DNA from: Paenibacillus terricola
GTDB taxonomy: Bacteria; Bacillota; Bacilli; Paenibacillales; Paenibacillaceae
Direction: 5' to 3'
Length of the DNA stretch: 64,000 nt
NCBI RefSeq assembly: GCF_014779765.1
Contig: NZ_JACXZA010000008.1
Span: 62,001 to 126,000 of the forward strand
Shown: piece after piece, positions 44,609 to 61,874 of the stretch
Position numbering within the stretch: the first letter of the stretch is position 1
Layout: each line of letters opens with the position of its first letter
Program-made: the position numbers and the translations under genes
The notes under the pieces: model-generated
What the model was told of the DNA's origin: nothing
The model's input: only the letters and a program-made list of their open reading frames with translations
The model's database searches: none

Positions 44609-44615
44609 AGATGTT

Positions 44616-44657: not shown

Positions 44658-44704
44658 ATATAAGTCGTTTGACTTTTCTAGTCATATTCTTTCAATGAAC
44701 TAAA

Positions 44705-45049: not shown

Positions 45050-45077
45050 ATATACCACCTCCATTGATTAGACGAAG

Positions 45078-45926: not shown

Positions 45927-46049
45927 TATCACGAATATTAATTTCATCTATATCAGTGTCATGGATATAATTAACTATAGCTAAGCGCTAATGAGTTGAT
46001 TAACGCCATTTATGGTCAAACCTATTTACACTGACGGGAGAGTTGGTCC

Positions 46050-47345
46050 ATGGGGCATCATACAGATTTTTTGAACATGAATATAGAGCAATTAAACCAG
46101 CATTATGCGTCTCTTAAAGAAAGATATGATGAGTATAAGAATCAGAATATGAAATTAGATATGTCTAGAGGGAAACCATGTCCTGAACAGCTAGAGTTAT
46201 CAAAGAGCATGCTCGATACGGTCACATCCAGTGATCGTTTACAAGCATCGGATGGATCGGATTGTCTCAATTATGGCGGTGTTGATGGGATACCCGAAGC
46301 GAAAGAGCTTTTTGCACAAATACTTGGGGTAAGTTCAAATGAAGTTATTATCGGTGGAAGCTCAAGTCTTACGATGATGCACGATACGATTAGCCGAGCG
46401 ATGCTTCACGGTGTTTATGGCAGCGAGCAACCGTGGGTGAAACAACCAACAGTTAAATTCTTGTGTCCAAGCCCGGGTTACGACAGACATTTTGCTATAT
46501 GTGAACTGTTGAATATTGAGATGATCGTAGTGGATATGCTTCATGATGGTCCGGATATGGATGCGGTTGAGGCACTGGTTAGTCAGGATGATTCGATTAA
46601 AGGAATATGGTGTGTTCCCAAATACAGCAACCCTGATGGGATCACGTATTCGCATCAGGTTGTCAATAGGCTTGCCAACATGAAGACGAAGGCGAGAGAT
46701 TTTAGAATTTTCTGGGATGACGCGTACAGTGTACATCATCTGACTGACCAACCAGATCCGTTGACGAATGTGCTAAGCGCATGTAAAGAAGCCGGAAATC
46801 CTGACCGTGTATTTCTATTCTGCTCCACCTCCAAGATCACTTTCCCAGGAGCGGGTGTTGCTGCTATGGCCGGAAGCGTCGAGAACATCAATTACATGCG
46901 GAGCCTGATTTCTGTCCAGACCATTGGTCCCGATAAGATTAACCAGTTGAGACATACCCGATTCCTGAAGGATATGGATCATGTAAGAAGTCATATGGCC
47001 AAACATGCCGCTATTCTTAAACCTAAATTTGAGATGGTCTTGGGTAAGTTAGAATCAGAACTTGACGGGAAGAATATCGCATTCTGGAACAAACCAAACG
47101 GAGGATATTTCATTAGTTTGAATACACTGGACGGTTGTGCCAAGATTGCGGTGAAAATGGCAGCCGATGCCGGGGTTACATTGACTGCGGCAGGAGCGAC
47201 ATTCCCTTATGGACGAGACCCACGTGACCGTAATATACGCATTGCCCCCTCATTTCCATCTGTGAAAGAACTAGAGAAATCGATCGAGGTATTAAGCATT
47301 TGTATCCAACTGGCAAGCATCGATAAAATTTTGTTAGAGCAATAG
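46050..47345 (+). CDS. Class I/II PLP aminotransferase (type Ic aspartate-aminotransferase-like)
   Basis: 431 aa. PLP-enzyme features: SSSLTMMHD after IIGG, CPSPGYDRHF, the WDDAY motif with YSNPDGI, and the Lys that binds PLP in STSKITFPGAG (about 263). N-terminal MSRGKPCPEQLELS is typical of the type Ic aminotransferase family. GGGAG precedes the ATG. Strong terminator downstream. It is separated by its terminator from the carrier-protein cluster, so probably not part of it. Confidence 0.88.
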   Translation: MGHHTDFLNMNIEQLNQHYASLKERYDEYKNQNMKLDMSRGKPCPEQLELSKSMLDTVTSSDRLQASDGSDCLNYGGVDGIPEAKELFAQILGVSSNEVIIGGSSSLTMMHDTISRAMLHGVYGSEQPWVKQPTVKFLCPSPGYDRHFAICELLNIEMIVVDMLHDGPDMDAVEALVSQDDSIKGIWCVPKYSNPDGITYSHQVVNRLANMKTKARDFRIFWDDAYSVHHLTDQPDPLTNVLSACKEAGNPDRVFLFCSTSKITFPGAGVAAMAGSVENINYMRSLISVQTIGPDKINQLRHTRFLKDMDHVRSHMAKHAAILKPKFEMVLGKLESELDGKNIAFWNKPNGGYFISLNTLDGCAKIAVKMAADAGVTLTAAGATFPYGRDPRDRNIRIAPSFPSVKELEKSIEVLSICIQLASIDKILLEQ

Positions 47346-47374
47346 TGGCTACTTCGGCCTTGCAAGTTTAACCG

Positions 47375-47417
47375 GAGACTTTCAATCTGTCGACAGATTG
47401 GAAGTCTCTTTTTTTTT
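47375..47417 (+). terminator. Strong Rho-independent terminator
   Basis: GAGACTTTCAATCTGTC pairs with GACAGATTGGAAGTCTC (47375-47391 with 47392-47408, one G-T pair), followed by nine T. Confidence 0.88.
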
Positions 47418-47474
47418 CAGCCGGATTGTAAATCCACATTGCTTGTTTCATAAAACCGGTACCTCTGGAAGCGC

Positions 47475-47503
47475 TTGTATTGAAAATATGAAACGCATAT
47501 AAA
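47475..47503 (+). promoter_or_regulatory. Sigma-A promoter of the amino-group carrier protein cluster
   Basis: TTGTAT, 17 bp and TATAAA. About 155 bp of untranslated leader follow before the LysW-like gene, in which I recognise no T-box or other riboswitch. Confidence 0.55.
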
Positions 47504-47660
47504 AGTTATCTATTATGGAAGCAATTGACTGATAGGGGTTCGAATGTTAAAGTGAACTCAACTTTCAATTCTAACTTAGCCGCTGGGAATTGTAAGTTTA
47601 AGCTAAGGGGAATAGAGGTTGATCTTATTGGGCTCACAAATTGAGGGAGGTGCAAGGATA

Positions 47661-47834
47661 ATGGCAGATTTGAGCTGCTTGGTTTGCAAATCGGAAATCG
47701 AGCTGGGAGAGCAAGTATCGACAGGTGAAATCGTAGAATGCGAATCATGTGGTCAAGAGCACGAGGTACAAGTCCAATCCAATCTCGTAACGATCGCTCT
47801 GGCTCCGGAAATCGAAGAAACTTGGGGAGAGTAG
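47661..47834 (+). CDS. lysW: LysW-like amino-group carrier protein
   Basis: 57 aa. Zinc ribbon of two CxxC pairs (Cys6/9 and Cys27/30) in a very acidic protein that ends ETWGE, the C-terminal signature of LysW/amino-group carrier proteins (usually EDWGE), whose last Glu gamma-carboxylate is joined to the amino group of the substrate. The start at 47661 follows GGGAGG and AAGGA. It heads an operon of LysX, LysY, LysZ and LysK homologues, which fixes the role: it protects the alpha-amino group and serves as a handle for pathway enzymes. Confidence 0.92.
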   Translation: MADLSCLVCKSEIELGEQVSTGEIVECESCGQEHEVQVQSNLVTIALAPEIEETWGE

Positions 47835-47844
47835 GAGAGTGAAT

Positions 47845-48735
47845 ATGGATCAGCGGATTTTATTGTGCGTAACGAAGCTGCGCGAAGAGGAGCAGCTTAT
47901 CATACAGCATCTGAACGAAGAGGGCATTCAGGTCGAAGTCAATTTGGACTCTATGGATCTGCCGCTTGGAGCGGGGGCTGCCGATTCCTACGGCCTTGCG
48001 CTTATCCGCTGCCTATCACAGAAAAATGCGCTTAGTCGATCCCATCTGCTTGATCTAGCCGGTTATGACACTTTGAATACGAATCAGGCCATAGCCGTAT
48101 GCACGAATAAAATTCATCAAGCCATTGTGTTCGATAATGCCGGCGTTCCTCAACCGAGATTTCAAATTGCTTTCACGCCTGCGAAGCTCTCCGAAGGTTT
48201 GCAAACATTCGGAGACTTATGCGTCATTAAGCCGGCCACCTCGTCATGGGGAAGAGGAATCGCGCGAATTACCGGCAAAGAATGCCTGGATGGATGGCTG
48301 GCCGCAAGGGAATCTGTAGACCCTGCACACCAATCGTTCCCAGTGCTAGTGCAGGAGTATATAGAGAAGGGGGATTATGATATACGGGTCGTCATTGTCG
48401 GTCGAACTCCGATTGCAGCATTCCGAAGAGTATCGGCCGAGAATTGGAAAACGAATACGCATCTTGGCGCGGAAATTGAGCCGATTGCCGTTAACGAGGA
48501 AATCGCGGCCATTTGCAACCAGTTGGTGGAAGTGCTGGGCGAAGGAATATATGGCGCCGATCTGTTCTTCGACTACACGCAGTTGCGCTATGTGGTCTGC
48601 GAAGTCAATCAAAACCCGGAATTCGCCAAGTCATGGAAAATCCATGGCGTCAATGTCGCGAAGCATATAGCGCTATATGTCAAAGATACAATCGAACAGA
48701 AAAAAGGAGCTCAACTCGCGCTAAATACCAAGTAA
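47845..48735 (+). CDS. lysX: LysX-like ATP-grasp ligase (carrier protein loading)
   Basis: 296 aa RimK/LysX-type ATP-grasp enzyme. KPATSSWGRGIARI is the ATP loop (about 130), VLVQEYIEKGDYDIRVVIVG the hinge, and CEVNQNPEF the metal-binding motif (N-x-N). It should form the isopeptide bond between the carrier protein's terminal Glu and the alpha-amino group of glutamate or aminoadipate. Start at 47845 behind TAGGAGAG, eleven bases after the carrier stop. Glutamate versus aminoadipate cannot be decided by eye. Confidence 0.88.
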   Translation: MDQRILLCVTKLREEEQLIIQHLNEEGIQVEVNLDSMDLPLGAGAADSYGLALIRCLSQKNALSRSHLLDLAGYDTLNTNQAIAVCTNKIHQAIVFDNAGVPQPRFQIAFTPAKLSEGLQTFGDLCVIKPATSSWGRGIARITGKECLDGWLAARESVDPAHQSFPVLVQEYIEKGDYDIRVVIVGRTPIAAFRRVSAENWKTNTHLGAEIEPIAVNEEIAAICNQLVEVLGEGIYGADLFFDYTQLRYVVCEVNQNPEFAKSWKIHGVNVAKHIALYVKDTIEQKKGAQLALNTK

Positions 48736-48755
48736 ATGGGGAGGCAATATTGTAA

Positions 48756-49418
48756 ATGAGCGGTGTGCTGACCAAACCTGAAGACGTGATCCGGAAGGAA
48801 GATTATTTTTCGTTATCCTTTGTGCTTTCTAGAGTTTTAAACTCCGGCGTTATTATGAGCATCGAGAAAAACGACCACGAATTGAAGGGCTTGGAGAAAA
48901 GCATCGCTAAACTGACAGGACTGAAATATGTATCCTTATTCAACAGCTTTACAGGCGCTATACACGGTGCATTGTGGGGGCAGGATCTGGGCTATGGTTC
49001 TTCCGCGCGGCTTGATCATCCGAGTGAACAGGAGAACAAATTCGTGCAGTGGCTGGGAGTGCTCACCTCCTCTGATCCGCATGTGAATGCTGCTTATACG
49101 TCCATCTCCGTTAATTGGGGCAACATTGACCAGTTGGAACGGCTAATTGCCGGTGCTGTAGGCAGGGCGCAGGTACTTGTGATCGACTTTACAGGGTTAG
49201 GCTTCGGGCCGGCAGCGTCGATCGCCGCTAATGACGAGAACATCTGGAAAAAAGCGGAGCGGCTCAAAATATTCGGCGCCTTCGATTTGCAAACGATGTG
49301 GACGCAGGAAGAGAGCGAGCCTGAGCTGCAGCCGGCTGCGCAGTTCAACTATAGACTGAGCCCGCTTGTTGCGGCATGCGTGAAAATTGCTCTACTAAGG
49401 AGGAATTCGAACGGATGA
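48756..49418 (+). CDS. Truncated DegT/DnrJ-type aminotransferase-like protein lacking the PLP lysine
   Basis: 220 aa. It aligns with the large-domain core of DegT-family aminotransferases (GLKYVSLFNSFTGAIHGALWG for the usual SGTAALHLAL block; QFNYRLSPLVAACVKIALL for YRMSELQAA), but the stretch with the Schiff-base Lys and the C-terminal small domain are absent. It cannot be a complete PLP enzyme. Its stop overlaps the start of the full DegT enzyme by four bases, so the two are made together and may form a heteromer with this chain as structural or regulatory subunit. GGGGAGG precedes the ATG. Confidence 0.65.
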   Translation: MSGVLTKPEDVIRKEDYFSLSFVLSRVLNSGVIMSIEKNDHELKGLEKSIAKLTGLKYVSLFNSFTGAIHGALWGQDLGYGSSARLDHPSEQENKFVQWLGVLTSSDPHVNAAYTSISVNWGNIDQLERLIAGAVGRAQVLVIDFTGLGFGPAASIAANDENIWKKAERLKIFGAFDLQTMWTQEESEPELQPAAQFNYRLSPLVAACVKIALLRRNSNG

Positions 49419-50740
49419 AAACAGACTTTATCCGCAAACCGCTTGATTTGCCATCGGACGAATGGATACAGGCTCCGCTTGCTTATCAAGGGGGACCCGC
49501 TGTTCTGCCTGAAGATGTAAGAAAGACGAACTTCCCGATCATTACGAAGGAAGATGTCATTCAAATGCTTGTCTCCATCCAACAGGATGGAGACAAGGTG
49601 GTGGAAGAATTTCAGGAGGCATACCGTCAATATGTGGGTGCCAATTATGCGATCGCAACGGCCTCCGGAACCTCTAGTCTGCACCTGGCGTTAGTCGGGG
49701 CGGGCGTCCAGCCGGGCGATGAGGTAATCGTGCCTGCGTTTACATTCATCGCTACCGCGCAGGCGGTAGTGGCAGCCAAGGCGATTCCGATCTTCGTCGA
49801 TATCGACCCTGTTACGTACTGCTTGGATCCTTCGAAGGTTGAAGATGCCATTACGCGAAAGACAAAGGCAATTATGCCTGTCCATGTACACGGACTTCCG
49901 GCAGATCTGCCTGCTTTAAGCGGAATCGCCAATCAATATTCGCTTCGTTTGGTTGAAGATGCCTCCCACGCGCATTCGGCCTCGATTCATGGCCGGTTGG
50001 CAGGTTCGATCGGGGATAGTGCCGGACAAAGCTTAATGGCGGACAAAAACTTCCCAGTAGGCGGAGAAGGCGGCATCGCTTTCTTCAAAGAGAAAGAAGA
50101 TTATAAACGGGCGCTCGATTTCCTGAACACATCCGGTATTGATTACCGAATGTCGTGGATTGCGGCAGCCTTTGGTCTCAGCCAATTAGATCGCCTTCCC
50201 TATTACGATGCGATTCGCGCGCGCAATGCAGCTTACTTGACGAAAGCATTGGCGGAGACGAAGCTATTCAGCGGCCCGCATGTGCCGGGCGGCTATAAGC
50301 ATAGCTACAACATGTACCGGGTGAAGCTGTCGCCGGAGCGACTGGGACTGGACGATCTGGAGGATTTCCGAGTGAAGGACGCGATTCAGCAGCTCATTCA
50401 GCTTGAAGGCGTCTACGCTAGGGAATGGCAGAACGTGCCGATTCCGGGGCATCTCCCATTCCAGAATCGGAAAGGCTTCGGCAACGGGTATCCTTTCACG
50501 CTGTCGGACCGTAAAGATTTCGGTTATGACGTCAATCGATTCCCTGTGACGTTAAACATGCTGCGCAATTCCTTAACGATCTGCCGCGAGCTTCGAACGC
50601 CGATTGAATATGAGCGCATCCAAGCTTACGCGCTGGCGTTCAAGAAAATCGATGCGAACCCGCATATTATACGTGAGCTTGTCGAGCGAGGCGGCGGCGA
50701 GCTGAAATCTCCTTATGAAAGGGATGCCAGATTAGGATGA
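49415..50740 (+). CDS. DegT/DnrJ/EryC1/StrS-family PLP aminotransferase
   Basis: 441 aa. The block TASGTSSLHLALVGAG, DEVIVPAFTFIATAQAV, VHVHGLPAD, EDASHAHSA and the PLP Lys in MADKNFPVGGEGG identify a DegT-family aminotransferase with complete catalytic residues. It should aminate a keto group on the carrier-bound chain, for instance after the transketolase step. AAGGAGG precedes the start at 49415. It overlaps both neighbours by ATGA. Confidence 0.88.
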   Translation: MKTDFIRKPLDLPSDEWIQAPLAYQGGPAVLPEDVRKTNFPIITKEDVIQMLVSIQQDGDKVVEEFQEAYRQYVGANYAIATASGTSSLHLALVGAGVQPGDEVIVPAFTFIATAQAVVAAKAIPIFVDIDPVTYCLDPSKVEDAITRKTKAIMPVHVHGLPADLPALSGIANQYSLRLVEDASHAHSASIHGRLAGSIGDSAGQSLMADKNFPVGGEGGIAFFKEKEDYKRALDFLNTSGIDYRMSWIAAAFGLSQLDRLPYYDAIRARNAAYLTKALAETKLFSGPHVPGGYKHSYNMYRVKLSPERLGLDDLEDFRVKDAIQQLIQLEGVYAREWQNVPIPGHLPFQNRKGFGNGYPFTLSDRKDFGYDVNRFPVTLNMLRNSLTICRELRTPIEYERIQAYALAFKKIDANPHIIRELVERGGGELKSPYERDARLG

Positions 50741-51792
50741 GTGCGAACGCATCCCCAGGCCGAATCAGAACAGCCATTCTCGGCGGCAGCGGGTTCACTG
50801 GCGCCGAGCTGTACAGGCTGCTCAGCAGGCATCCTCAATTCGAAGTGGCGTTCATCTCTTCCGAATCGAGAGCGGGCTACCCGGTTGATAAATACTTTAT
50901 TGGTTCCGTTCATAAGAAAAAGCCAAGCGCGCTCAAATTCAGCAAGCTGGCGGAGCTTGACGGCCATTATGATGCTATCTTTTCTTGCTTGCCTACGGGA
51001 GCATTACCGGAAATTATCCATCAAGTGGCGGAGCATGCGCAATACATTTTCAATGTGAGCGGCGATTATCGTCTCTCCGATCCTACCTTATTAAACGAAC
51101 ATTATCCGAAGACGCTCAAACATGCATTCGAAGAGAACAAACATTATTTTATACCGGAGTTTAGTGAAGTAGACCGCTCGGCGAAGGTCGTCAACTTGCC
51201 GGGCTGCATGGCGGTCGCGTCGATTTATACGCTCTATCCGCTCGTGGCTCATGACCTGATTGAAGCGAAGGTTGTAACTGACGCCAAGACGGGTTCAAGC
51301 GGTGGCGGCAAATCGACGTCCGAGCATCATGCGGAACGCGCCAACAACTTCAGAGCCTTCAAGCTTCATGGGCATCGTCATCGACCGGAAATCGAGTATG
51401 CGCTGCAGCTCCACCTTGATCGGACGGTTCAATTACAGTTTTCCGTGTTTAGCTTGGATTTGCCAAGAGGAATCATGGCGACGTCGTATACGACCTTAAA
51501 GGAGCAGGTGAGCGCTGTTGATGTGAAAAAGGCGTTCTATAGCGCTTATTCGTCCAAGCCGTTCCTTCATTATTTCAATTCGGGCAGCTCATCTCCCATG
51601 ATCAAGACGGTTGTAGGAACAAACTATGCGGAGATTGGCGCTTACGTGGTAGGACGCAGCTGCGTTTCGCTTGCTACAATCGATAATTTGATCAAAGGGG
51701 CTGCTGGACAAGCGATTCAGGCGGCAAATCTTTATTTCGGCTTTCCAGAAGAAGAAGGTTTGCTGTTCGAAGGGGAAGGAGCGTGGCCTTAA
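50737..51792 (+). CDS. lysY: LysY/ArgC-like acyl-phosphate reductase
   Basis: 351 aa. NADPH motif AILGGSGFTGAEL, the active-site Cys in LPGCMAVAS and the His region KLHGHRHRPE mark an N-acetyl-glutamyl-phosphate reductase/LysY. It should reduce the carrier-bound acyl phosphate to the semialdehyde, the acceptor for the transketolase. Translationally coupled at both ends (ATGA before, TAATG after). Confidence 0.9.
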   Translation: MSANASPGRIRTAILGGSGFTGAELYRLLSRHPQFEVAFISSESRAGYPVDKYFIGSVHKKKPSALKFSKLAELDGHYDAIFSCLPTGALPEIIHQVAEHAQYIFNVSGDYRLSDPTLLNEHYPKTLKHAFEENKHYFIPEFSEVDRSAKVVNLPGCMAVASIYTLYPLVAHDLIEAKVVTDAKTGSSGGGKSTSEHHAERANNFRAFKLHGHRHRPEIEYALQLHLDRTVQLQFSVFSLDLPRGIMATSYTTLKEQVSAVDVKKAFYSAYSSKPFLHYFNSGSSSPMIKTVVGTNYAEIGAYVVGRSCVSLATIDNLIKGAAGQAIQAANLYFGFPEEEGLLFEGEGAWP

Positions 51793-53639
51793 TGAGCAGC
51801 GGCAGTTTATATGTAATTAAGCTGGGCAGCAGCACAATCGTGAATCACCCCGAAGTATTCGCCGAGATTGAACGCATAGCGAGGCGAGGCAGCCGAGTGT
51901 TGATCGTTGCAGGCGGGGCGGAGGCGATACGCCGGAAATATGAGGCAATATCGCGACCGATGCCATTCCTGACGCTAGCCTCTGGTGACGAGGTACGTTA
52001 CTGCTCGCCAGAGGAGCTTCCCATCATTCGCGATGCTTATCACGAGAACATCCTGAGCGTTATTCATCAACAGCTGAATGGGCGAGGGCTGCGTGTGTAC
52101 GCACAGTTGGGCGGAGACCAAGGGTTGGTGTACGGGCAGAAAGCCAAGCCGATTAAGGCTATTCGCGATCACAAGCCGGTTATCGTCCGTGACTCTTATT
52201 TCGGACAATTTACTGGCAGCCATACAGCCTTCCTCCAATCCGCTCTGAACGCCTTTGATGTCGTGACGCTTACTCCGCCGATTTGGGATCCGGAGCTTCG
52301 CTCCTACATTAATATCGACGCCGATGTGCTAGCCGCGCATCTGGCCGTCGATTTGAAGGCGCATCATTTGCGCTTTGTTACGGGAACGGAGGGACTGTTA
52401 AGCGATATTGCCGATCCGCATTCAACGATTGCCGATGTGTATGAAGACGATGTGATCCAATCGGTTCAAGGCCGAATGAAGCAGAAGGTTCGCGCTGCTC
52501 AGCTGGCTATTCGGGAAGGCGTCGGCGACGTTCAAATTACAGGGGCGCATACGTTGGAGAAAGGCGGACGAACAAGGTTCTGGAGCGGCAAGAGGGGTCC
52601 GGAAGCGTTTGACCTGCTAAACAAGGTTGCTCGAATTCCTTCCGTGTCGGAGGATGAGCATGAGCTTGCCCGTTTCTTGTTGGAAAACGTTCGTATTCCT
52701 TCTGTGGCTGGCAAGATTGACGAGGCAGGCAATATCGTATTCCGCAAAGGAAACGGGCCTCATACGCTGCTTTTGCTTGGGCATATCGATACCGTTCCTC
52801 ATGTGTGGCTAGTCCGTTCGGACAACGAAGGCCTCACAGGAAGAGGCGTCGTTGATGCCAAAGGAAGCTTTGTCAACTTTGTTCATATGCTTGAAGACGT
52901 TGAAGTGCCTGAACAAGGAACGCTGCTCGTTATCGGGGCGGTCGAAGAGGAAATATCCTCTTCGAAGGGTGCGTTCTATGTTCGCGACCATTACGCAGCG
53001 GATGCCGTTATTATCGGCGAACCCAGCGGAGACGACAGCTTAACGCTTGGTTATTACGGCCTGTTCAAGCTGCGGATTACGATTCGACGGGCGCAGGAGC
53101 ATACGGCGGCTAAGGATACGGTAAGCGTCGCCGACGAGCTGTATCAGGTGGTATCGGTGATTCGTCAACGAGTGCTGGCAATTGATCCGCATTCGTTGTC
53201 CTCGCTTATCGATATTCAGCACAGCCATGAAGAGGGCTATTTGACGGCGGTCGGCATACTCAATTTCCGAATATCGCCGGAGGCTGGCAGCGATTATGCC
53301 AGCAGCGTCCCGCTGGCGTTCAATGAAGGCGTAACCGTTGAAGTGCTTCGGGCTACGCCGGGATTTGCGAATCCGCGATCGGACGATTTGGTCAAGTCCT
53401 TCATCCGAAGTTTTGCGAAGCAGCAGCGATCGATCCGATATCTCAAGAAAAAGGGAACCAGCGATATGAATACGCTGGCGACGACGTGGAGAGGCGTACC
53501 GATGGTTGCATACGGACCGGGCGATTCCAGTCGGGATCATACGAACGAGGAGTATTTGAGCTTTAAGGAATCGGCATCAGCCCGCGTGATACTAAGAGAA
53601 GCGGTATCGGAATGGTTCCGGATTCGAACGGGGGTGTAA
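51792..53639 (+). CDS. LysZ-LysK fusion: carrier-bound amino acid kinase plus M20 deacylase
   Basis: 615 aa, two enzymes in one chain. Residues 1-265 are an amino acid kinase of the acetylglutamate-kinase/LysZ type (YVIKLGSSTIVN, VLIVAGGAEAIRRKY, INIDADVLAAHLAVDLKA) that phosphorylates the side-chain carboxylate. Residues about 270-615 are an M20 peptidase like LysK/ArgE (GHIDTVPHVW, GRGVVDAKGSF, GAVEEEISSSKGA, GEPSG, KKGTSDMN), which cuts the finished amino acid from the carrier protein. Separate in the known LysW pathways, they are joined here without stop or frameshift. The ATG at 51792 overlaps the LysY stop (TAATG); a GTG at 51783 is an alternative. Confidence 0.88.
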   Translation: MSSGSLYVIKLGSSTIVNHPEVFAEIERIARRGSRVLIVAGGAEAIRRKYEAISRPMPFLTLASGDEVRYCSPEELPIIRDAYHENILSVIHQQLNGRGLRVYAQLGGDQGLVYGQKAKPIKAIRDHKPVIVRDSYFGQFTGSHTAFLQSALNAFDVVTLTPPIWDPELRSYINIDADVLAAHLAVDLKAHHLRFVTGTEGLLSDIADPHSTIADVYEDDVIQSVQGRMKQKVRAAQLAIREGVGDVQITGAHTLEKGGRTRFWSGKRGPEAFDLLNKVARIPSVSEDEHELARFLLENVRIPSVAGKIDEAGNIVFRKGNGPHTLLLLGHIDTVPHVWLVRSDNEGLTGRGVVDAKGSFVNFVHMLEDVEVPEQGTLLVIGAVEEEISSSKGAFYVRDHYAADAVIIGEPSGDDSLTLGYYGLFKLRITIRRAQEHTAAKDTVSVADELYQVVSVIRQRVLAIDPHSLSSLIDIQHSHEEGYLTAVGILNFRISPEAGSDYASSVPLAFNEGVTVEVLRATPGFANPRSDDLVKSFIRSFAKQQRSIRYLKKKGTSDMNTLATTWRGVPMVAYGPGDSSRDHTNEEYLSFKESASARVILREAVSEWFRIRTGV

Positions 53640-53642
53640 GCG

Positions 53643-54449
53643 GTGCAGACGATATCTCTTCTTAGACAATCCGAAGACGAACTCTCGCAGCTGGCAGAGA
53701 AAGCGAAGTTGGCTAGGCGTCTTATTATCGACATGGCGGCATCGCCAGTGGGCTGCCACATCGGGGGCAGCTTATCCGTTATTGATTTGCTTATTGGAGC
53801 GTATGCCGTTTACGGCAGCGATCCGGATTCCGTTATCGTGCTCAGCAAGGGGCATGCCGCTGCAGCCCTCTACGCCGCTCTATATGTGAACGGCATCCTT
53901 GCGGACAATCCGGCGGACAGCTACGGGCAAGAAGGATCCCTATTCACCGGGCATCCGAATCATAAACTGCCTGGCATTCCTTTTGCGACGGGGAGCTTGG
54001 GACATGGCATTCCGTACGCTGCCGGGTGGGCGCTTGCCCAGAAGCTGAAAGGATCGCCCGGCATTGGGCTCGCAATCAGCGGAGACGGTGAACTGCAGGA
54101 AGGTCTGTGCTGGGAGACGGCGCAAATCGCGCAAGCGCAGTCGCTTGCGAACTTCATTTATATTGTCGACTGCAACGGCGGACAGAATGACGGGTATATC
54201 GCCGACATCTCGCCGATCCGCAACTTGCGTCAGCGATTTGAGGCATTTGGCTTCCTCGTCCGCGAGATTGACGGCCACAGCTTAGAAGAGATTGTGGGTG
54301 CGGTGGTGCCAGACCCAGAGAAGCCGGTAGCCGTTCTAGCGGCAACGGTCAAAGGGAAGGGAGTGGCGGCAATCGAAGGAAAAGCAGAGGCGCATTATGC
54401 CAAAATTCCGCAGAAGCTTGCTGAGCGATGGAAGGCGGGATTGCGTTGA
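53643..54449 (+). CDS. Transketolase N-terminal subunit (TPP-binding)
   Basis: 268 aa. The thiamine diphosphate motif is GDGELQEGLCWETAQIAQAQ to VDCN (about 142-178), and SKGHAAAALYAAL and GSLGHGIPYAAG are typical. It pairs with the next gene as a split transketolase. In a LysW-type operon it should transfer a two-carbon ketol unit to the carrier-bound semialdehyde, lengthening it to a hydroxy-keto acid, as proposed for DADH formation in vazabitide biosynthesis. GTG start, three bases after the LysZ-LysK stop. Confidence 0.9.
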   Translation: MQTISLLRQSEDELSQLAEKAKLARRLIIDMAASPVGCHIGGSLSVIDLLIGAYAVYGSDPDSVIVLSKGHAAAALYAALYVNGILADNPADSYGQEGSLFTGHPNHKLPGIPFATGSLGHGIPYAAGWALAQKLKGSPGIGLAISGDGELQEGLCWETAQIAQAQSLANFIYIVDCNGGQNDGYIADISPIRNLRQRFEAFGFLVREIDGHSLEEIVGAVVPDPEKPVAVLAATVKGKGVAAIEGKAEAHYAKIPQKLAERWKAGLR

Positions 54450-55390
54450 CGTTGTCAGGGAGGGATGCCTACAAGGAGGAGCTTGCCGATCTGGCTGCTA
54501 TTCATAGCGGAATCATCTGTATGGAGGCTGATTTGGGTGGGAAAAATCATCCGTTTCAGCAGCGTCATCCCGATCGATTCGTGAATGTCGGGATCGCGGA
54601 GCTCGCAGGCATCGATATAGCCGCTGGGTTGGCGGAAGCGGGTTACGTACCGTTCTTCTCCACATTCGCTTCGTTTGCTGCTCTTCGTGCATCCGAGAGC
54701 ATGAAGCTAGCGATGGGGTATATGGGCAAGAACGTCAAGGTAGTTGCCGCTTATGGCGGAGTGTCAGGCGGATGGTTCGGCACGACGCATCATGCATTGG
54801 AGGATATTGCCGTCGTTCAATCGTTTCAGAATATCCGTATTGCTTGCCCGCACGGAGAAGAAGAGACGAGGCGAGTCATACGGGAAGCTGCGGAATCGGA
54901 AGAGCCGTATTACATTCGGCTGTCCCGTAACGACGTATTCGAGAGCATCCCCCGCGAGGAAGGCGGCAGTTGCCGCGATATTCTGGTCGAAGGCGGCAGA
55001 GCGGGTATCCACCCGCGGTTATGCCTCCTCTCAGTCGGCGAACAAGCGACAGAGCTCTGCCGCGAAATCGTGAGGAACGACGACTCGATCGTGCATGCTC
55101 ATCTTTGCTACGTTGATCCTGTCAGTTTAAAGGATTCCATCGAGCAGCTAAGCCGCTTGTCCGACCGTTTGCTTGTTGTTGAAGAACACCGCGCTACGGG
55201 AAGTACCGCATCTTATCTCGCGCTGCTGCTTCCGAAGCATGAGGTTTATTCCCATCATTGCGGCGAGCGCTGGCCGATATACGGAGGAACGCACGCCGAG
55301 GTGCTATCCTATTTGGGCTTCGGACTCGAACCGCTGCAGCAGCAAATTCGCGAGATTGCAGGAGGTTCCGATGATCTTTCGCGTTCTTAA
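54428..55390 (+). CDS. Transketolase C-terminal subunit
   Basis: 320 aa. The pyrimidine-binding domain has VNVGIAELAGIDIAAGLAEAG, with the Glu that activates the cofactor, and STFASFAALRASE. The C-terminal domain runs from about 190. It overlaps the N-subunit gene by 22 bp. The ATG at 54428 has a weak ribosome site; a TTG at 54446 behind GGCGGG is an alternative. Confidence 0.88.
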   Translation: MEGGIALTLSGRDAYKEELADLAAIHSGIICMEADLGGKNHPFQQRHPDRFVNVGIAELAGIDIAAGLAEAGYVPFFSTFASFAALRASESMKLAMGYMGKNVKVVAAYGGVSGGWFGTTHHALEDIAVVQSFQNIRIACPHGEEETRRVIREAAESEEPYYIRLSRNDVFESIPREEGGSCRDILVEGGRAGIHPRLCLLSVGEQATELCREIVRNDDSIVHAHLCYVDPVSLKDSIEQLSRLSDRLLVVEEHRATGSTASYLALLLPKHEVYSHHCGERWPIYGGTHAEVLSYLGFGLEPLQQQIREIAGGSDDLSRS

Positions 55391-56585
55391 GCTCAAGGAC
55401 TTCCGTAATTATTTCATCGCGGATATCGTATCCGGCTTCGGAGTAGGGATGAGCACGATCGGAGCTAACTGGTATCTGATGGATAAGACGGGATCGATAT
55501 CCGCAGTAGGGCTGATGCTTTCGCTCAATGTCATCGCTGGCTTTCTGATCTCAACCTTTGCCGGAACGTTCATCGACAAGTGGAACCGGAAGACGATTAT
55601 TTTATGGGCGAATATCGTTCGGGCCGCAGCGCTGCTGTTGATTCTCGGCGGGTTTCTGTGGACAGGATTCCGGGTGGAGTATGTGTACGCCTTTGCTATC
55701 TTGAACGGCATGGGATGGGCGTTGTATATTACCGCTTCGCGCAGCTTGCTGCAGGAGATGCTGCCGGAGAACGAGCTTATCCACGGTAATTCTTTAATCG
55801 AGATTAGCTTGCAGGTCGGCATGTTCTCGGCGGGCGCGCTATCAGGCGTCCTCTACAAATATGTTGGCTTCGAAACAATTCTTCTTCTGAATGCCATTGC
55901 CTTTATTGCAAGCAGTCTCTTTCTTGGTAAAATCCGGTTTACTCCGGTTCATGCCGAGAATCGCGAGGAAAGCTATTTGCACAATTTCAAAGACGGTATC
56001 CGCTATTTGGCGGATCGGCCATTTCTTTTTCTGCTCGGCGTCATTTCCATTATTCCGCTTGTGTCCACGATGATCTTTAACGTTGTGCTCCCGGGCTATG
56101 TAAGCCGTGCAGTGAACGGCGATTCGGTCGTGTTCGGACTGTCGGACATGTTCTACGGAGTTGGAGGGCTGATATCCGGTTTTATTGCAGCTCCATTGGC
56201 TAGAAAACTATCGCAGAACGGTACGATCGTCTTGTTGTTTGCGGTCGCTGTGCTCAATCTGGCGGCGGTATCCTTCAACAAAACAATTGTACTGCTGTAT
56301 ATCGGCAGCGTGCTGATTGGCTTGACGAATTCCTCCCTGCGCGTCTTGATGACGACGGCGTTGATGGAGTCGGTCTCCAAGTCGTATATGGGACGGGCGA
56401 CGTCGGTTTGGATGGCAATCTCCTTGCTGCTGCAAACTTTTGCCGCTACGGGACTGGGGACATTAATCGACGCTTATACGCCAGGCGCCGGATTTATTTG
56501 CATGAGCGGTCTCATGTTCGTCGGGCTTGTGCTGTATTTCGCGTTGAACAGCAGACGAGCGGATAAGGTAACGCTGGAAGCCTGA
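55371..56585 (+). CDS. MFS exporter (EntS/DHA3-like)
   Basis: 404 aa with about twelve transmembrane segments. DKWNRKTIILWANIVRA is the MFS loop after helix 2, and NGMGWALYITASRSLLQEMLPENEL is typical of the macrolide/enterobactin exporter subgroup. I place the start at 55371, four bases behind GGAGG and overlapping the transketolase gene; the longer frame is an overlap artefact. Likely exports the cluster's end product or provides self-resistance. Confidence 0.85.
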   Translation: MIFRVLKLKDFRNYFIADIVSGFGVGMSTIGANWYLMDKTGSISAVGLMLSLNVIAGFLISTFAGTFIDKWNRKTIILWANIVRAAALLLILGGFLWTGFRVEYVYAFAILNGMGWALYITASRSLLQEMLPENELIHGNSLIEISLQVGMFSAGALSGVLYKYVGFETILLLNAIAFIASSLFLGKIRFTPVHAENREESYLHNFKDGIRYLADRPFLFLLGVISIIPLVSTMIFNVVLPGYVSRAVNGDSVVFGLSDMFYGVGGLISGFIAAPLARKLSQNGTIVLLFAVAVLNLAAVSFNKTIVLLYIGSVLIGLTNSSLRVLMTTALMESVSKSYMGRATSVWMAISLLLQTFAATGLGTLIDAYTPGAGFICMSGLMFVGLVLYFALNSRRADKVTLEA

Positions 56586-56626
56586 ACGATTATGAGTTGG
56601 AATAGGAATATAAGGAGGATGATGAA

Positions 56627-57892
56627 ATGTCTGTAACGGTCAAAACGGTAGCTTTTGTCGAGCCAAGTTTTTATGGCGTAAGCTTCGCCAGAGCCGCATT
56701 CGAACAAGGTCATCAGGTAATCGCCATTGTGTCTTCTGCGGATAATCCACGCAAATACGGCTACGAAGGCATCTATCATGATCTCCTTGTTGCCGACATC
56801 CGTGATGAGGAGTCCATCTACGAAGCAATCGCGGCTTCTCCTTACGCCAATCGGCTGGATGCGCTTATTCCAGCTACGGATTATGCTTCGCATCTGACGG
56901 CGAGGGTGGCGGAGCGGCTTGGCCTTCGCGGCGTTCCTTATGAAGCCGCTTTGCGTTCCCGGAACAAAGATCTCGCCAGGGAAGCTTATGCAAGGCATCA
57001 AGTGCCGGGCGCGAAGTATCATAAAGTAAAGACGTACGAGGAAGCAGAGCTTGCAGCTAACGAAATCGGCTATCCAGTCGTACTTAAGCCGACCAACGCC
57101 GCAAGCAGTCAACATGTTTATTTTATTCACAGCGGGTTGGAGCTTCAGCAAGCGTTCAGCCAAATCGCACAGTTTAAGGTTTCCTATTTGGATTTTCAAG
57201 TACGCAATGATTATTTGATCGAGGAATATATCGACGGACCTGAGTTTAGCGTAGAGCTGTTCCTTCAAGAAGGTGAAGCGGTTTTCTCAGCCGTTACGGA
57301 GAAGATCACATCGCCGCTCCCGTATTTCGTTGAAGTACAGCATACACTGCCTACGCCGTCTTACGTAGAACAGGAAGGGGATATCATTCGAACAGCTATT
57401 GCCGCGCTTCAGGCGATCGGCATTGCGAATGGCCCAAGCCATGTAGAGATCCGGTTGTCCTCAGACGGTCCTCGCATTATCGAGGTGAACGGCAGACCGG
57501 GAGGCGACAACATTTCATCCGATTTGCTCGTACAGGCGTTTGGCGTGAATATATTCGAAGCGACAGTGAATTATTATTTGGGTCAGCCCGTATCGATTGA
57601 TAAGAAGCATCATCGCGCCGCCTCCATTGCTTATGTGACGGCTGAACGCGACGGGATATTCGAGCGGCTTGACGGATTTGAGCAAATTGAAGGGAAAGCC
57701 GGGGTTGTTCGCAGCCTGCTAACCGTGTCCCCAGGTGATCGGATTAAGGTAGCTGCAAGCTCCGATGACCGTCTGGGGTATGTTATCGCAGCAGCCGATA
57801 CGCCGGAAGAAGCGCGGACGATTGCTCGAACGTTGGTTGATGGCTTGAACATCGTTTATCGGAAGCAGGAGGCGGAAGCGGAGGTAGTCTAG
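56627..57892 (+). CDS. ATP-grasp L-amino acid (peptide) ligase
   Basis: 421 aa. Carboxylate-amine ligase features are VVLKPTNAASSQHVYFI (about 145-162), YLIEEYIDGPEFSVELF (adenine hinge) and IIEVNGRPGGDN (metal binding). It is of the BacD-like dipeptide ligase group rather than RimK. In the LysW-type cluster it could join the released amino acid to a second amino acid, making a small peptide. AGGAGG precedes the ATG. Confidence 0.82.
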   Translation: MSVTVKTVAFVEPSFYGVSFARAAFEQGHQVIAIVSSADNPRKYGYEGIYHDLLVADIRDEESIYEAIAASPYANRLDALIPATDYASHLTARVAERLGLRGVPYEAALRSRNKDLAREAYARHQVPGAKYHKVKTYEEAELAANEIGYPVVLKPTNAASSQHVYFIHSGLELQQAFSQIAQFKVSYLDFQVRNDYLIEEYIDGPEFSVELFLQEGEAVFSAVTEKITSPLPYFVEVQHTLPTPSYVEQEGDIIRTAIAALQAIGIANGPSHVEIRLSSDGPRIIEVNGRPGGDNISSDLLVQAFGVNIFEATVNYYLGQPVSIDKKHHRAASIAYVTAERDGIFERLDGFEQIEGKAGVVRSLLTVSPGDRIKVAASSDDRLGYVIAAADTPEEARTIARTLVDGLNIVYRKQEAEAEVV

Positions 57893-57937
57893 CTTTTCGT
57901 CTTCATGCTCTTTATTTCATCGAGAGGTGACGTGAGA

Positions 57938-58492
57938 ATGGGGATTGCAGTTATACATGGAAGCTCCCGCAAGAACGGTAATACGGATCAATTAGCCCGC
58001 TTACTGGTAGAGGGGTTCGAGGCAGACCATATTTATTTGGCTGATTATCGGATCGAGCCGATTGTCGATTATCGCCATTCCGAGAAAAGGCCGTATCCGG
58101 ACGATGACTACCGTAACGTTCTGGAGCGGGTATTGGCTCAAGACGTGCTCGTATTCACGACGCCGATCTATTGGTATGGGCCGTCGGGTCTTACGAAGAC
58201 GTTCATTGATCGGTGGTCACAGTCGCTGCGCGAGAATAAGGAGCCATTTCTTGCTGCCTTGCGTGCAAAGTCAGCTTGGGTGCTAGCTGTTGGAGACGAT
58301 GAGCCTCATCTCAAAGGAATACCGCTAATCCAACAATTCCAGCATATATTCGGGTACACCGGAACCAACTATGCGGGCTACATCATTGGCAAAGGCAATA
58401 AGCCTGGCGATATTGTGCAGGATACGGTTGCTTTGGCTGCGGTAGAAGCCGTTCGACAGCAGTGGACTCTCGAGAGACGAACACTTACTTGA
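57938..58492 (+). CDS. Flavodoxin-like NAD(P)H-dependent FMN oxidoreductase
   Basis: 184 aa. The FMN-phosphate loop is HGSSRKNGNTDQLA, and DVLVFTTPIYWYGPSGLTKTFIDRW is the flavin-binding block of the NADPH-dependent FMN reductase family. The start at 57938 follows GAGAGGTG. Last gene of the cluster, before a terminator; it could carry out a redox tailoring step. Confidence 0.85.
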   Translation: MGIAVIHGSSRKNGNTDQLARLLVEGFEADHIYLADYRIEPIVDYRHSEKRPYPDDDYRNVLERVLAQDVLVFTTPIYWYGPSGLTKTFIDRWSQSLRENKEPFLAALRAKSAWVLAVGDDEPHLKGIPLIQQFQHIFGYTGTNYAGYIIGKGNKPGDIVQDTVALAAVEAVRQQWTLERRTLT

Positions 58493-58530
58493 TGCGGCGG
58501 TTTGCATCCCAATGAAGAACAGGTCATTTT

Positions 58531-58565
58531 AAGCTTATCGTCCATCGCGACGGTAAGCTTTTTCC
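58531..58565 (+). terminator. Terminator of the carrier-protein cluster
   Basis: A 12-bp stem (58531-58542 with 58549-58560, one mismatch), a 6-nt loop and TTTTT. Confidence 0.8.
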
Positions 58566-58628
58566 TTTTAAATGTGAAACTCCTTATAGTATGATGGGTA
58601 TTACTATCGAACATCGGAGGATTACATT

Positions 58629-59198
58629 TTGTCTTGGAGTAAATTGAAGCAGCAACTGGAGAGTTTCCTTAGCCCTGCGTTAATTGGAAAGTTTGAATAC
58701 CGTGCAACCAGCTATCGTTATTTACCTGATAAACCAGGTCAATGTTATATTGCCGTAGATAAGAAGAACGTACTCAATATGAATGATGCAACGACATCCA
58801 TCAGATGGTATCAGTCCGATCTGGAGATTAAGAATGATCCCGCTATTGAAATTGCTATCAGTGAGGAAGAAATTGAAGCAATCAGGCAAGATACCAAGGG
58901 GCTGGTTCCGGAGGATCGCCTGGTCGTCATAGCACGCGGGAGAAAGATGACTGTACTCGCCAAAGAGATTTTGTCCGCGCAAACCTCATTAAGTAAATCC
59001 AACTTTACGGCTGCAGCGACTAAGTTTCTCGCCTCTTCCATAGAGGAAAGCTTAGAGAGCAAGGATATCATCCTTAATATTCTTGCTTTGGTGGATAGGC
59101 GTGTCGGGAAGAAGAGGATCCAGAACATGAGAGAGAGCGTGAAGATGAAGCATCCGAGCGTGCAGTACTTCTATGAACTTCGGCTTAGTACGGTGTGA
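58629..59198 (+). CDS. SF0329-family protein of unknown function
   Basis: 189 aa. The N-terminus MSWSKLKQQLESFL with YRATSYRYLPDKPGQCYI and the block TTSIRWYQSDLEIKNDP match a conserved hypothetical family (SF0329) found in enterobacteria and Firmicutes. No catalytic motif is evident. TTG start eight bases behind GGAGG. Not obviously linked to its neighbours. Confidence 0.7.
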   Translation: MSWSKLKQQLESFLSPALIGKFEYRATSYRYLPDKPGQCYIAVDKKNVLNMNDATTSIRWYQSDLEIKNDPAIEIAISEEEIEAIRQDTKGLVPEDRLVVIARGRKMTVLAKEILSAQTSLSKSNFTAAATKFLASSIEESLESKDIILNILALVDRRVGKKRIQNMRESVKMKHPSVQYFYELRLSTV

Positions 59199-59250
59199 GA
59201 AATCAACAAGAACTATAAATCGTTCCAATTGCCTGGGGAACTATATGAAT

Positions 59251-59279
59251 AAACACCGCCATTTATCAAGGCGGTGTTT
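59251..59279. terminator. Terminator hairpin between convergent genes
   Basis: AAACACCGCC pairs perfectly with GGCGGTGTTT around a 9-nt loop. Confidence 0.75.
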
Positions 59280-59295
59280 GAGCTATTTTTCAAAT

Positions 59296-59778
59296 TTAAG
59301 CGTTATTAAATTCCTGGATGGATCTTCGCTTTTCATCATATGTCTCACTATACGAGTTGCTTGTATAAGTTTTTATGACACTCCGCCAGAAGGCCTGAGC
59401 GGGATAGTTACGTTCGACTTGCGTTACTTTCCAATCACCCCTGTGTCGATCAAAAATTATCATTGCCGCTTGTTTCCCTACACCTTTGCCGCTATATTTC
59501 TTTAGAACAAAAAACTGTTCCATCTCAAACGCTGATTTATTAAGTTCATTATTAGTCATTGTCACAATAACGAAGCCTAACAGCGTCTCTTCAGACTTGA
59601 TAAAGTAAGCATTATATTTTTCATCAGATAAGTACTTATGAACTGGAGCCTTCCTGAATAAGCCATCTTGATTAACCTCGAAGTTCAAATACGGACTAAA
59701 TTCGTAATCATAGTACTCGAATAGGTTCAGCAAGATGTGTTCCTCATTGATTGTCACTTCTTCAAGATAAATGTTCAT
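59296..59778 (-). CDS. GNAT-family N-acetyltransferase
   Basis: 160 aa. The acetyl-CoA-binding motif is FVLKKYSGKGVGKQAAMIIFD (Q/RxxGxG/A, about 92-103), preceded by the beta-4 segment LGFVIVTM. The acceptor is unknown. Start ATG at 59778 behind AAAGGATAAG. Complete, no frameshift. Confidence 0.85.
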   Translation of the reverse strand: MNIYLEEVTINEEHILLNLFEYYDYEFSPYLNFEVNQDGLFRKAPVHKYLSDEKYNAYFIKSEETLLGFVIVTMTNNELNKSAFEMEQFFVLKKYSGKGVGKQAAMIIFDRHRGDWKVTQVERNYPAQAFWRSVIKTYTSNSYSETYDEKRRSIQEFNNA

Positions 59779-60036
59779 TCATCTTATCCTTTCATCTCAG
59801 AAGTCTTCCTTCCACTCTTAGAGAGGAGGGGAAGTTTAAATACATGGGAAGCGATATCTTTAATTTTTCTTTATCTCCTGTGACGATTCCTGCAATTGTG
59901 TTGCTTGCAGAATACTTGAAACTCCTTCTTAACTTCCACAGAACATGAATACGTTTGATTCTAGTAATTTCCCAACACTTCTAGGCTGAAATTTTTTTAA
60001 TTCTATTTTGAATCCCTCGATAGATTACATCAGCCG

Positions 60037-60858
60037 ATGGCATCAATAAGATGGGGCATGGAAGGAGTGAGGGGGTTGCAGACGATTCATAAGGGGCTGT
60101 ACATAAGCGCTACTGACTTATCGTCGGAAAATCGCGGTCCCGAGCCGGCGAACGAGAAGGATTTAGTTGAAAAAGCAAGGACGGGGGATCCCGATGCGTT
60201 CGGCGAGTTAGTACGCAGGCACCGTTCCAAGGCATTAGGAATCGCGCGCTCGCTTACTCAGGACCATCACTTGGCCGAAGATATCGTCCAAGATGCGCTG
60301 ATTCGTGCATTTCTCCATCTTGGTTCGCTAGTTGATGCTGCTCGGTTCTCACCATGGCTGGCCAAAATCATACGCAACGAGGCGTACATGAAGGTGCGCC
60401 GGGGCGGCCCGCATCGAAGGGAGCAGCCGTTCACCAGTCTTGAAGGCGCTAGGCAGCCGGCTATCGGCGCCGATGATTGGCAAGATATCGACCGCATATT
60501 GTTCCAGCTAAGCCGCTCGGCACTTGATTCTGCGAGACAGATGCAAGATCCGTCTGCCGCCTTCATGCGCAAGGAGCTGATCGACGGCATCCGCAGTCTG
60601 CTGCAATGTTTAAGCCCAAGGGAGAAGCGGATATTCGAAGCTTATTTTTTTGAGCAGCTGCCTCCGCAAGAAATCGCCGCACTATTGGATACCGCGGTTG
60701 CGAACGTGTATAACAGCATTTCCAGGGCACGGAGCAAGATGCAGCAGGAACGCATTCGTGTCCACATCAGCATGTATGTGCAGCAACGTCGACAAATGGG
60801 GAAACCGGGAAAAGTGCTGCTGGCGCCGCCTTTATTTGTTCCGGTTTGGGAGGATTGA
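60037..60858 (+). CDS. ECF-type RNA polymerase sigma factor
   Basis: 273 aa or slightly less. Region 2 is DAFGELVRRHRSKALGIARSLTQDHHLAEDIVQDALIRAF (about 53-90) and region 4 is LSPREKRIFEAYFFEQLPPQEIAALLDTAVANVYNSISRARSKM. The basic tail after region 4 (about 35 residues) is unusual. The start is uncertain: 60037, the ATG at 60058 or a TTG at 60076 behind GGAAGGAG are all possible. It is coupled to the BtrH-like gene five bases downstream, a possible target or modulator. Confidence 0.85.
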   Translation: MASIRWGMEGVRGLQTIHKGLYISATDLSSENRGPEPANEKDLVEKARTGDPDAFGELVRRHRSKALGIARSLTQDHHLAEDIVQDALIRAFLHLGSLVDAARFSPWLAKIIRNEAYMKVRRGGPHRREQPFTSLEGARQPAIGADDWQDIDRILFQLSRSALDSARQMQDPSAAFMRKELIDGIRSLLQCLSPREKRIFEAYFFEQLPPQEIAALLDTAVANVYNSISRARSKMQQERIRVHISMYVQQRRQMGKPGKVLLAPPLFVPVWED

Positions 60859-60862
60859 GACG

Positions 60863-61837: not shown

Positions 61838-61874
61838 TATTAAACGAACGATTTAAATAATCGATGAAATAGAG

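What the first reader, a model, noticed from the sequence alone, without database searches (positions are those of the whole stretch)
47661..58492. Amino-group carrier protein cluster with transketolase in a Firmicute
Seen: LysW, LysX, DegT pair, LysY, LysZ-LysK, split transketolase, MFS, ATP-grasp peptide ligase and flavin reductase in one tight operon with several ATGA overlaps. Known: LysW-type carriers serve lysine/arginine synthesis in Thermus and archaea, and in Streptomyces a carrier plus transketolase makes DADH for vazabitide. Inference: glutamate is loaded, phosphorylated, reduced, extended by C2, aminated, released and joined into a small peptide that is exported. The aminotransferase type, the fusion and the single ligase differ from what I know of vazabitide.
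Basis: partly seen in the sequence, partly recalled or inferred. Interest (0 to 1): 0.88.

Follow-up and report, generated by a model that had tools for sequence, protein, structure and literature searches.

The report
Carrier-protein dipeptide operon in Paenibacillus
This is a real operon shared by many soil bacteria that probably builds an unusual amino acid on a small carrier protein, joins it into a dipeptide and exports it; its enzymes resemble those of known Streptomyces antibiotics, but the product is unknown.

Summary
Window 47661-58492 holds eleven open genes: LysW, LysX, a short DegT-like protein, DegT, LysY, a LysZ-LysK fusion, split transketolase, MFS exporter, L-amino-acid ligase and a flavodoxin-fold reductase. 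The ten-gene order LysW-to-ligase recurs in 29 of 29 other Paenibacillaceae genomes found with this LysX, in a Clostridium MAG and in one genome of another family. Reordered versions lie on a Pseudalkalibacillus and a Staphylococcus plasmid, the eight-gene core on a Streptomyces plasmid. It is not lysine or arginine synthesis: lysA and argJ lie elsewhere and no homocitrate synthase passes cut-off. It works like the transketolase carrier pathway of vazabitide, but a ligase stands where NRPS stands there, and no PF00685 sulfotransferase was found in the genome. The DegT pair is homologous to both chains of one solved structure (8y96). LysX shows neither published substrate signature, so glutamate loading is unproven. 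In 17 of 29 genomes an oligopeptide-type importer sits directly upstream, behind a promoter region that one importer-free genome (L040) has directly before LysW; this hints at a secreted and recaptured product. Verdict: new variant of a known kind, product unknown.

The parts
47374..47409 (+). terminator-like hairpin after the upstream aspartate aminotransferase gene
   Evidence: consensus scan; 8 such sites found in 47300-58800 against a mean of 12.0 in shuffles, so no statistical support
47525..47553 (+). promoter-like site TTGACT-17-TAAAGT before LysW
   Evidence: consensus scan only; 16 found, shuffles mean 10.6, sd 3.3
47584..47596 (+). TGGGAATTGTAAG element, like one in promoters of related operons
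47661..47834 (+). LysW-type amino-group carrier protein, 57 aa, four Cys, C-terminus ETWGE
47845..48735 (+). LysX-type ATP-grasp ligase that loads the carrier
48756..49418 (+). short DegT-like protein, 220 aa, no Lys in the stretch aligned with the catalytic one; probable partner of DegT
49415..50740 (+). DegT aminotransferase, catalytic Lys in SLMADKNF
50737..51792 (+). LysY/ArgC-type semialdehyde dehydrogenase, PGC active site
51783..53639 (+). LysZ (kinase) - LysK (M20 hydrolase) fusion
53643..54449 (+). transketolase N-terminal subunit (GDG...N)
54428..55390 (+). transketolase C-terminal subunit (GIAE)
55371..56585 (+). MFS transporter (MFS_1/MFS_3), presumed exporter
56627..57892 (+). ATP-grasp L-amino-acid ligase with LAL_C2 domain
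57938..58492 (+). flavodoxin-fold NAD(P)H reductase (FMN_red), kin of PDB 1rli
58531..58560 (+). terminator-like hairpin after the last gene
   Evidence: same caution as above

Best explanation
A carrier-protein (AmCP) biosynthetic operon for a small secreted peptide. LysX joins the amino group of an acidic amino acid (glutamate most likely) to the C-terminal Glu of LysW. The LysZ half of the fusion phosphorylates the side-chain carboxylate and LysY reduces it to an aldehyde. The split transketolase adds a two-carbon ketol unit. The DegT pair aminates the new ketone, giving a 2,6-diamino-5,7-dihydroxyheptanoic acid (DADH)-like residue. The LysK half frees it from the carrier, the L-amino-acid ligase couples it to another amino acid, and the MFS protein exports the dipeptide. 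The reductase is an accessory step of unknown target. Shown here: gene content, order, kept catalytic residues, shared ancestry, lysine and arginine genes elsewhere. Inferred: every reaction, the substrate, the product and the export.
For: Ten genes in fixed order on one strand in 29 of 29 other family genomes. Catalytic residues checked in DegT, LysY, LysK, TktN and TktC are kept in 36 of 36 rows (one LysK Glu is Asp in one row); the LysZ Gly pair in 34 of 36, the two others being Streptomyces rows with a separate LysZ; the ligase residues in 33 of 33. DegT and its short partner match the two chains of one PDB entry (8y96: 595 and 223 bits). Passages seen give this enzyme logic: carrier-bound amino acid to DADH for vazabitide (PMC9303977), and glutamate semialdehyde, transketolase, aminotransferase to DADH for azinomycin, there mainly through N-acetylglutamate (PMC9570651). 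One LysW and one strong LysX in the genome; lysA and argJ elsewhere. The ligase has LAL_C2 and matches the ligases BL00235 and BacD.
Against: LysX does not carry the published glutamate signature, so the substrate may differ and the C7 skeleton is a guess. The Streptomyces camelliae relative has the carrier core with no match to the ligase, MFS or reductase, so ligation is not tied to the core. The reductase is not found in 6 of 29 genomes, though 4 of those have another 183-aa ORF in its place. In one genome (L100) TktC matches in two pieces that are not in one frame. No chemistry or expression was seen.
Confidence: 0.55

Rival explanations
1. Same enzymes, but the exported dipeptide is a scavenging molecule (metallophore-like or other nutrient carrier) that the cell takes back through a peptide-type ABC importer, with the flavodoxin-fold reductase helping release.
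For: In 17 of 29 genomes an oligopeptide-type SBP, with permeases before it, lies 65-292 bp upstream of LysW on the same strand; in the eleven of these that I also hold with 10 kb upstream, and in L042, the ATPases are there too. Its promoter region aligns with the one directly upstream of LysW in L040. L044 carries stubs of the importer. L053 has a more distant importer set upstream, with a C26 peptidase next to LysW. L128, of another family, has a distantly related SBP and permease pair upstream, ending 690 bp before LysW. The MFS matches the enterobactin exporter EntS model at 91 bits.
Against: The window genome lacks the adjacent importer; its nearest SBP homologue is 60% identical on another contig. 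12 of 29 have no intact SBP directly upstream in the 3.2-3.9 kb that I held. SBP homologues at E<=1e-100 occur in 66 of 394 genomes, more than have the cluster. The SBP is nearest to oligopeptide binders (AppA, Opp4A), nickel/metallophore binders are weaker. No metal regulator site was recognised by eye; none was searched for. MFS is far below the EntS cut-off (91 against 324).
Confidence: 0.2
2. A Trojan-horse antimetabolite: a dipeptide whose DADH-like residue imitates diaminopimelate or lysine, exported for self-protection and taken up by rivals' peptide transporters, as with bacilysin.
For: L-amino-acid ligase plus MFS next to a non-protein amino acid pathway is the layout I recall for bacilysin; the ligase shows kinship to BacD. 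A C7 2,6-diamino acid resembles diaminopimelate (inference from structure). Plasmid-borne copies.
Against: An importer directly upstream in 17 of 29 genomes would be odd for a self-toxic compound. No resistance gene other than the MFS was noticed. No activity data.
Confidence: 0.3
3. LysX loads a different amino acid (for example aspartate), giving a C6 analogue, or the C7 ketone closes on the freed amine to a hydroxy-hydroxymethyl pipecolic acid and the reductase saturates the ring.
For: Lys, Arg, His or Asn in this group at the LysX place that I read as the Asn (aminoadipate) or Gly (glutamate) of the signature; LysX groups on its own (99/98). Chloromyxamides contain 6-chloromethyl-5-methoxypipecolic acid (PMC8346489 passages), the same carbon skeleton; that paper calls their route unknown.
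Against: The conserved DegT pair points to amination of the ketone. Signature swaps do not always change specificity (PMC10433800). Asn at the place in L065 is the aminoadipate letter.
Confidence: 0.2
4. Primary lysine or arginine synthesis through LysW.
For: Homology of LysW, X, Y, Z, K to that pathway.
Against: lysA (495.5 bits) and argJ (516.6 bits) elsewhere in the genome above cut-off; no homocitrate synthase above cut-off, best 285.3 against 413.55; transketolase and ligase in the operon; only 30 of 394 family genomes have this LysX.
Confidence: 0.02

Closest known systems
Vazabitide A / azinomycin type DADH pathway (Streptomyces)
   Same: Carrier protein (vazabitide) and transketolase-aminotransferase logic, from passages of PMC9303977 and PMC9570651. 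Streptomyces plasmid clusters L069 and L124, which look of this kind, have LysW, LysX, kinase, reductase, split transketolase, DegT and M20 genes, at 29-42% identity for L069
   Different: LysZ-LysK fused, longer DegT partner (220 aa), ligase and no NRPS-sized ORF nearby, no PF00685 sulfotransferase in the genome, Firmicute host, LysX signature differs. Products of L069/L124 are not known to me; the vzb and azi genes were not compared. Ficellomycin is a kin only from recall.
PDB 8y96/8y97/8y98, DegT-family two-chain aminotransferase
   Same: Homologues of both subunits: 66% over residues 1-306 of chain A and 52% over chain C
   Different: Source organism, title and paper not seen; no paper naming these entries is in the held library
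Streptomyces camelliae plasmid locus L067
   Same: LysW-LysX-short DegT-DegT-LysY-LysZK-TktN-TktC in the same order with the same fusion
   Different: No match to the ligase, MFS or FMN gene; an amino acid permease and an SDR follow instead
Bacilysin (BacD L-amino-acid ligase, MFS export)
   Same: Ligase family and the idea of a dipeptide with a non-protein amino acid (the bacilysin layout is recalled)
   Different: Amino acid pathway unrelated; BacD model only 65.8 bits against a cut-off of 850
LysW-mediated lysine/arginine synthesis (Thermus, archaea)
   Same: Carrier chemistry and the LysX, Y, Z, K enzyme families
   Different: No homocitrate synthase above cut-off; transketolase, DegT pair and ligase added

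Membership tests
AmCP (LysW)-mediated pathway | Carrier with Cys zinc ribbon and C-terminal Glu | tested here: met
   Four Cys, ends ETWGE; PF21344 above cut-off. Ends in Glu in 30 of 30 family sequences, 28 ETWGE and 2 EDWGE. TIGR01206 and NF041070 below their cut-offs.
AmCP (LysW)-mediated pathway | LysX, LysY, LysZ, LysK enzymes with kept catalytic residues | tested here: met
   SSWGR in place of GSWGR in LysX; LysX model TIGR02144 below cut-off
Vazabitide-type DADH pathway | Transketolase and aminotransferase with the carrier genes | tested here: met
Vazabitide-type DADH pathway | LysX specific for glutamate | tested here: inconclusive
   Signature fits neither published type
Vazabitide/azinomycin class (azabicycle product) | Sulfotransferase for aziridine formation | tested here: not met
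   No PF00685 match at E<=0.001 in the whole genome; other sulfotransferase families not searched
Vazabitide/azinomycin class | NRPS assembly | tested here: not met
   No NRPS-sized ORF in 44000-62500, largest ORF 618 aa; rest of genome not searched
Dipeptide (L-amino-acid ligase) cluster | ATP-grasp LAL with LAL_C2 | tested here: met
   activity not testable here
LysW lysine synthesis | Homocitrate synthase for aminoadipate supply | tested here: not met
   All four matches below cut-off
8y96-type two-chain DegT | Both subunits homologous, short one without catalytic Lys | tested here: met
   no Lys in the aligned stretch in 34 of 34 rows; that the two form a complex here is inferred

The most novel reading that the evidence does not exclude
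A dedicated export-and-recapture system: a carrier-protein-built dipeptide, made without NRPS from an amino acid that LysX selects by a new specificity, is secreted by the MFS and taken back by a co-transcribed oligopeptide-type importer, as a new class of metallophore or scavenging peptide whose core has moved between Firmicutes and Streptomyces.
Probability: 0.17. Interest if true: 0.82.

Novelty: new variant of a known kind. Interest (0 to 1): 0.6.

Why it matters
The passages I saw describe carrier-protein secondary metabolism from Streptomyces, and predict it in some encapsulin-linked clusters. Here it is in 30 of 394 Paenibacillaceae genomes and on a Staphylococcus epidermidis plasmid, in a compact eleven-gene form with an amino-acid ligase where NRPS stands in Streptomyces. 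It is small enough to express whole, so the product, the substrate rule of LysX and the role of the DegT partner can be tested directly. The importer link makes the question of what the molecule is for testable as well.

Tried and rejected
Primary lysine/arginine synthesis: rejected. Azabicycle warhead by sulfate elimination: unlikely, no PF00685 sulfotransferase. Riboswitch or T-box control: in window 43000-60000 no Rfam match reached its gathering score (three weak chance-like ones at E<=1); in six loci only three Staphylococcus-plasmid RNAs did. CymR (sulfur) control of the shared promoter: the GGAATT core reminded me of a CymR site, but that consensus is recalled, the key paper is not held, a match to the recalled consensus failed by hand, and the pattern TNGGAATTRTANG found no regulon in the window genome: 10 sites against 3 for the control; of the nine outside this promoter six lie inside ORFs and three between ORFs. 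Structure of the short DegT: mean pLDDT 63.6, too poor, not used. Remnant of the importer upstream of LysW in the window: best E-value 0.066, none credible. One search used a wrong frame for DegT; repeated correctly.

Papers: passages seen of PMC9570651, PMC9303977, PMC10433800, PMC3519770, PMC2869319 and PMC8346489; otherwise search listings with starts of abstracts. No paper on this cluster was seen in searches, of an open-licence library only. Searches found no paper; the others list only the best rows (30 of 5,807; 23 of 25; 15 of 23; 15 of 1,796; 20 of 94; 12 of 591). Subscription papers (for example Hasebe 2016, Kurosawa 2022) were not read.
Full report
What is there. The window lies in a 6.78 Mb, 17-contig genome (G000). 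Its named relatives with the cluster are Paenibacillus species and a Fontibacillus, so I call its family Paenibacillaceae. Eleven same-strand genes lie between terminator-like hairpins at 47374-47409 and 58531-58560 (the scan finds fewer such sites than shuffles do, so these are position marks, not proof), with gaps of 10, 20, -4, -4, -10, 3, -22, -20, 41 and 45 bp. Families were assigned by Pfam and NCBIfam. The promoter-like site at 47525-47553 is a consensus match only.

Is it functional? The catalytic residues that I checked are kept (their roles are general knowledge): the DegT lysine, the LysY cysteine, seven LysK positions and the ThDP residues of TktN and TktC in 36 of 36 rows (one LysK Glu is Asp in one row), the LysZ glycines in 34 of 36 (the other two have LysZ apart), two ligase residues in 33 of 33. 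Rows are the window, 29 family genomes, L054, L065-L067, L069 and L124. LysW has four cysteines and ends in Glu. The short DegT-like protein has no Pfam match but is 62-79% identical in 15 relatives and has no lysine in the stretch (LVIDFTGLGFGP) that aligns with the catalytic one, so I read it as a non-catalytic partner.

How common? LysX at E<=1e-40 is in 30 of 394 family genomes including this one. All 29 others hold the order LysW-LysX-DegTsh-DegT-LysY-LysZK-TktN-TktC-MFS-LAL on one strand; in L100 TktC matches in two pieces out of frame with each other. The FMN gene follows in 21, precedes in 2 and was not matched in 6. Of those six, four (L091, L092, L099, L100) have another 183-aa ORF in its place that looks flavodoxin-like by eye (not checked with a model). 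A scan of genome contigs gave 26 loci: 16 (L039-L054) hold the cluster, 15 of them with all eleven genes, the Clostridium MAG L054 with ten; in the other 10 no DegT or transketolase was matched in the stretch held. DegT at E<=1e-100 was found in 2 of 398 genomes drawn from the phylum and 4 of 398 from the class, this genome counted in both; one, G963, is of another family and has the ten genes. The short DegT is on 3 of 72,556 plasmid records: Pseudalkalibacillus hwajinpoensis, Staphylococcus epidermidis and Streptomyces camelliae. The first two have all eleven genes in altered order; the third has the core of eight only.

Kinship. In a tree of 23 chosen LysX rows, these clusters, S. camelliae included, form one group (99/98) apart from lysine/arginine-type LysX and from LysX of Streptomyces plasmid carrier clusters. 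The program warns of long branches (L066, L067, L068) and that the place of L067 may be false. The best PDB matches for DegT and its short partner are the two chains of one entry, 8y96, at 66% (residues 1-306) and 52%. 8y96 is not from any locus I hold, the best being 67%. So a homologous pair has been solved by someone; its title was not seen. The second DegT match, 8gyh_B, has an active-site text like that of the Streptomyces AmCP-NRPS DegTs (SLQATKNIPTCGEGG against SLNVVKNLPTCGEGG); I recall, unverified, that it belongs to ficellomycin.

What LysX loads. PMC10433800 (passages) reports a five-residue signature, with Asn-Thr in the aminoadipate enzyme and Gly-Phe in the glutamate enzyme of Sulfolobus, and a GSWGR motif that meets EDWGE of LysW; it also shows that signature swaps need not change specificity. 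Placing the signature by the alignments is my reading. Here the motif pair is SSWGR/ETWGE, and the signature place holds Lys (His in L054, Asn in L065, Lys in L066, Arg in L067) where Asn or Gly is expected. Glutamate stays the most likely substrate by analogy, but this is the weakest step.

Not lysine or arginine synthesis. lysA (495.5 bits, cut-off 297.9) and argJ (516.6, cut-off 298) lie on other contigs; homocitrate synthase matches are all below cut-off (best 285.3 against 413.55); there is one LysW match in the genome.

The linked importer. In 17 of 29 genomes an SBP_bac_5-type protein, with permeases before it, lies 65-292 bp upstream of LysW; the stretch held upstream was 3.2-3.9 kb, so importers further off would be missed. 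With 10 kb held, the ATPases are there as well. The promoter region before the importer and the one directly before LysW in L040 align (15 sequences including the window): a dyad ATAGATTTNTTCTAT is in 13, with one change in L040 and absent in the window; GGAATT is in 12 (L043, L048 and L049 differ). In L044 the importer is reduced to stubs between that promoter and LysW. This suggests that importer and carrier operon form one transcription unit and that the importer was lost in some lines. L111 has the importer followed at once by the FMN gene with no core. L128 has a distantly related SBP and permease pair, ending 690 bp before LysW. Against a necessary link: 12 of 29 genomes and the window lack it there, and SBP homologues at E<=1e-100 occur in 66 of 394 genomes, more than have the cluster.

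Mechanism. See the best explanation. Steps up to DADH follow the published vazabitide/azinomycin logic; ligation and export follow from gene content. No reaction was shown here.

Verdict. Real, conserved, with kin on plasmids and in another phylum, and a new variant of AmCP-transketolase metabolism with a ligase where NRPS is known. Product and purpose are open.

Noticed in passing
L066 (NZ_CP043848.1, 30611-42088): A 54-kb Staphylococcus epidermidis plasmid carries all eleven genes (35-56% identity) with a LysR gene beside them; it is the only Staphylococcus record among the 3 of 72,556 plasmids with the short DegT.
   Followed up: partly
L111:10164-10715 and window 57938-58492: The FMN gene of G362, which has the importer but no carrier core, is 90% identical in protein to the window's copy (81% DNA over 708 bp), above the 41-77% of the 23 family clusters that have it: recent exchange or loss of the core.
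   Followed up: partly
L044:9355-9724: Stubs of DppD and SBP between the shared promoter and LysW: scar of an importer deletion.
   Followed up: yes
L045:276-3904: Upstream of the importer in several loci: M20 amidohydrolase, DinB, GNAT and NtaA/DmoA-type FMN monooxygenase, a gene set that I recall from organosulfur salvage operons.
   Followed up: partly
L065, L066, L078, L081, L093, L094: Related ORFs lie beside the cluster in six loci; in L065 and L066 they are annotated as LysR regulators. The conserved dyad upstream has the T-N11-A shape I recall for LysR sites.
   Followed up: no
window 47466-47479: TGGAAGCGCTTGTA upstream of the promoter looks like a CcpA/LacI-type cre site (recalled).
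   Followed up: no
window 46050-47345: Type Ic aspartate aminotransferase (NF053594, 654.5 bits) upstream of the operon, separated by a terminator-like hairpin; it formed no group among the flanking ORFs shared by four or more loci.
   Followed up: no
L067:25109-25885: In Streptomyces camelliae the core is followed by an amino acid permease and an SDR, which suggests a free amino acid product there.
   Followed up: no
L100 (TktC, 10721-11655 in the turned stretch): TktC matches in two overlapping pieces in different frames: a frameshift in that genome or a sequencing error.
   Followed up: no
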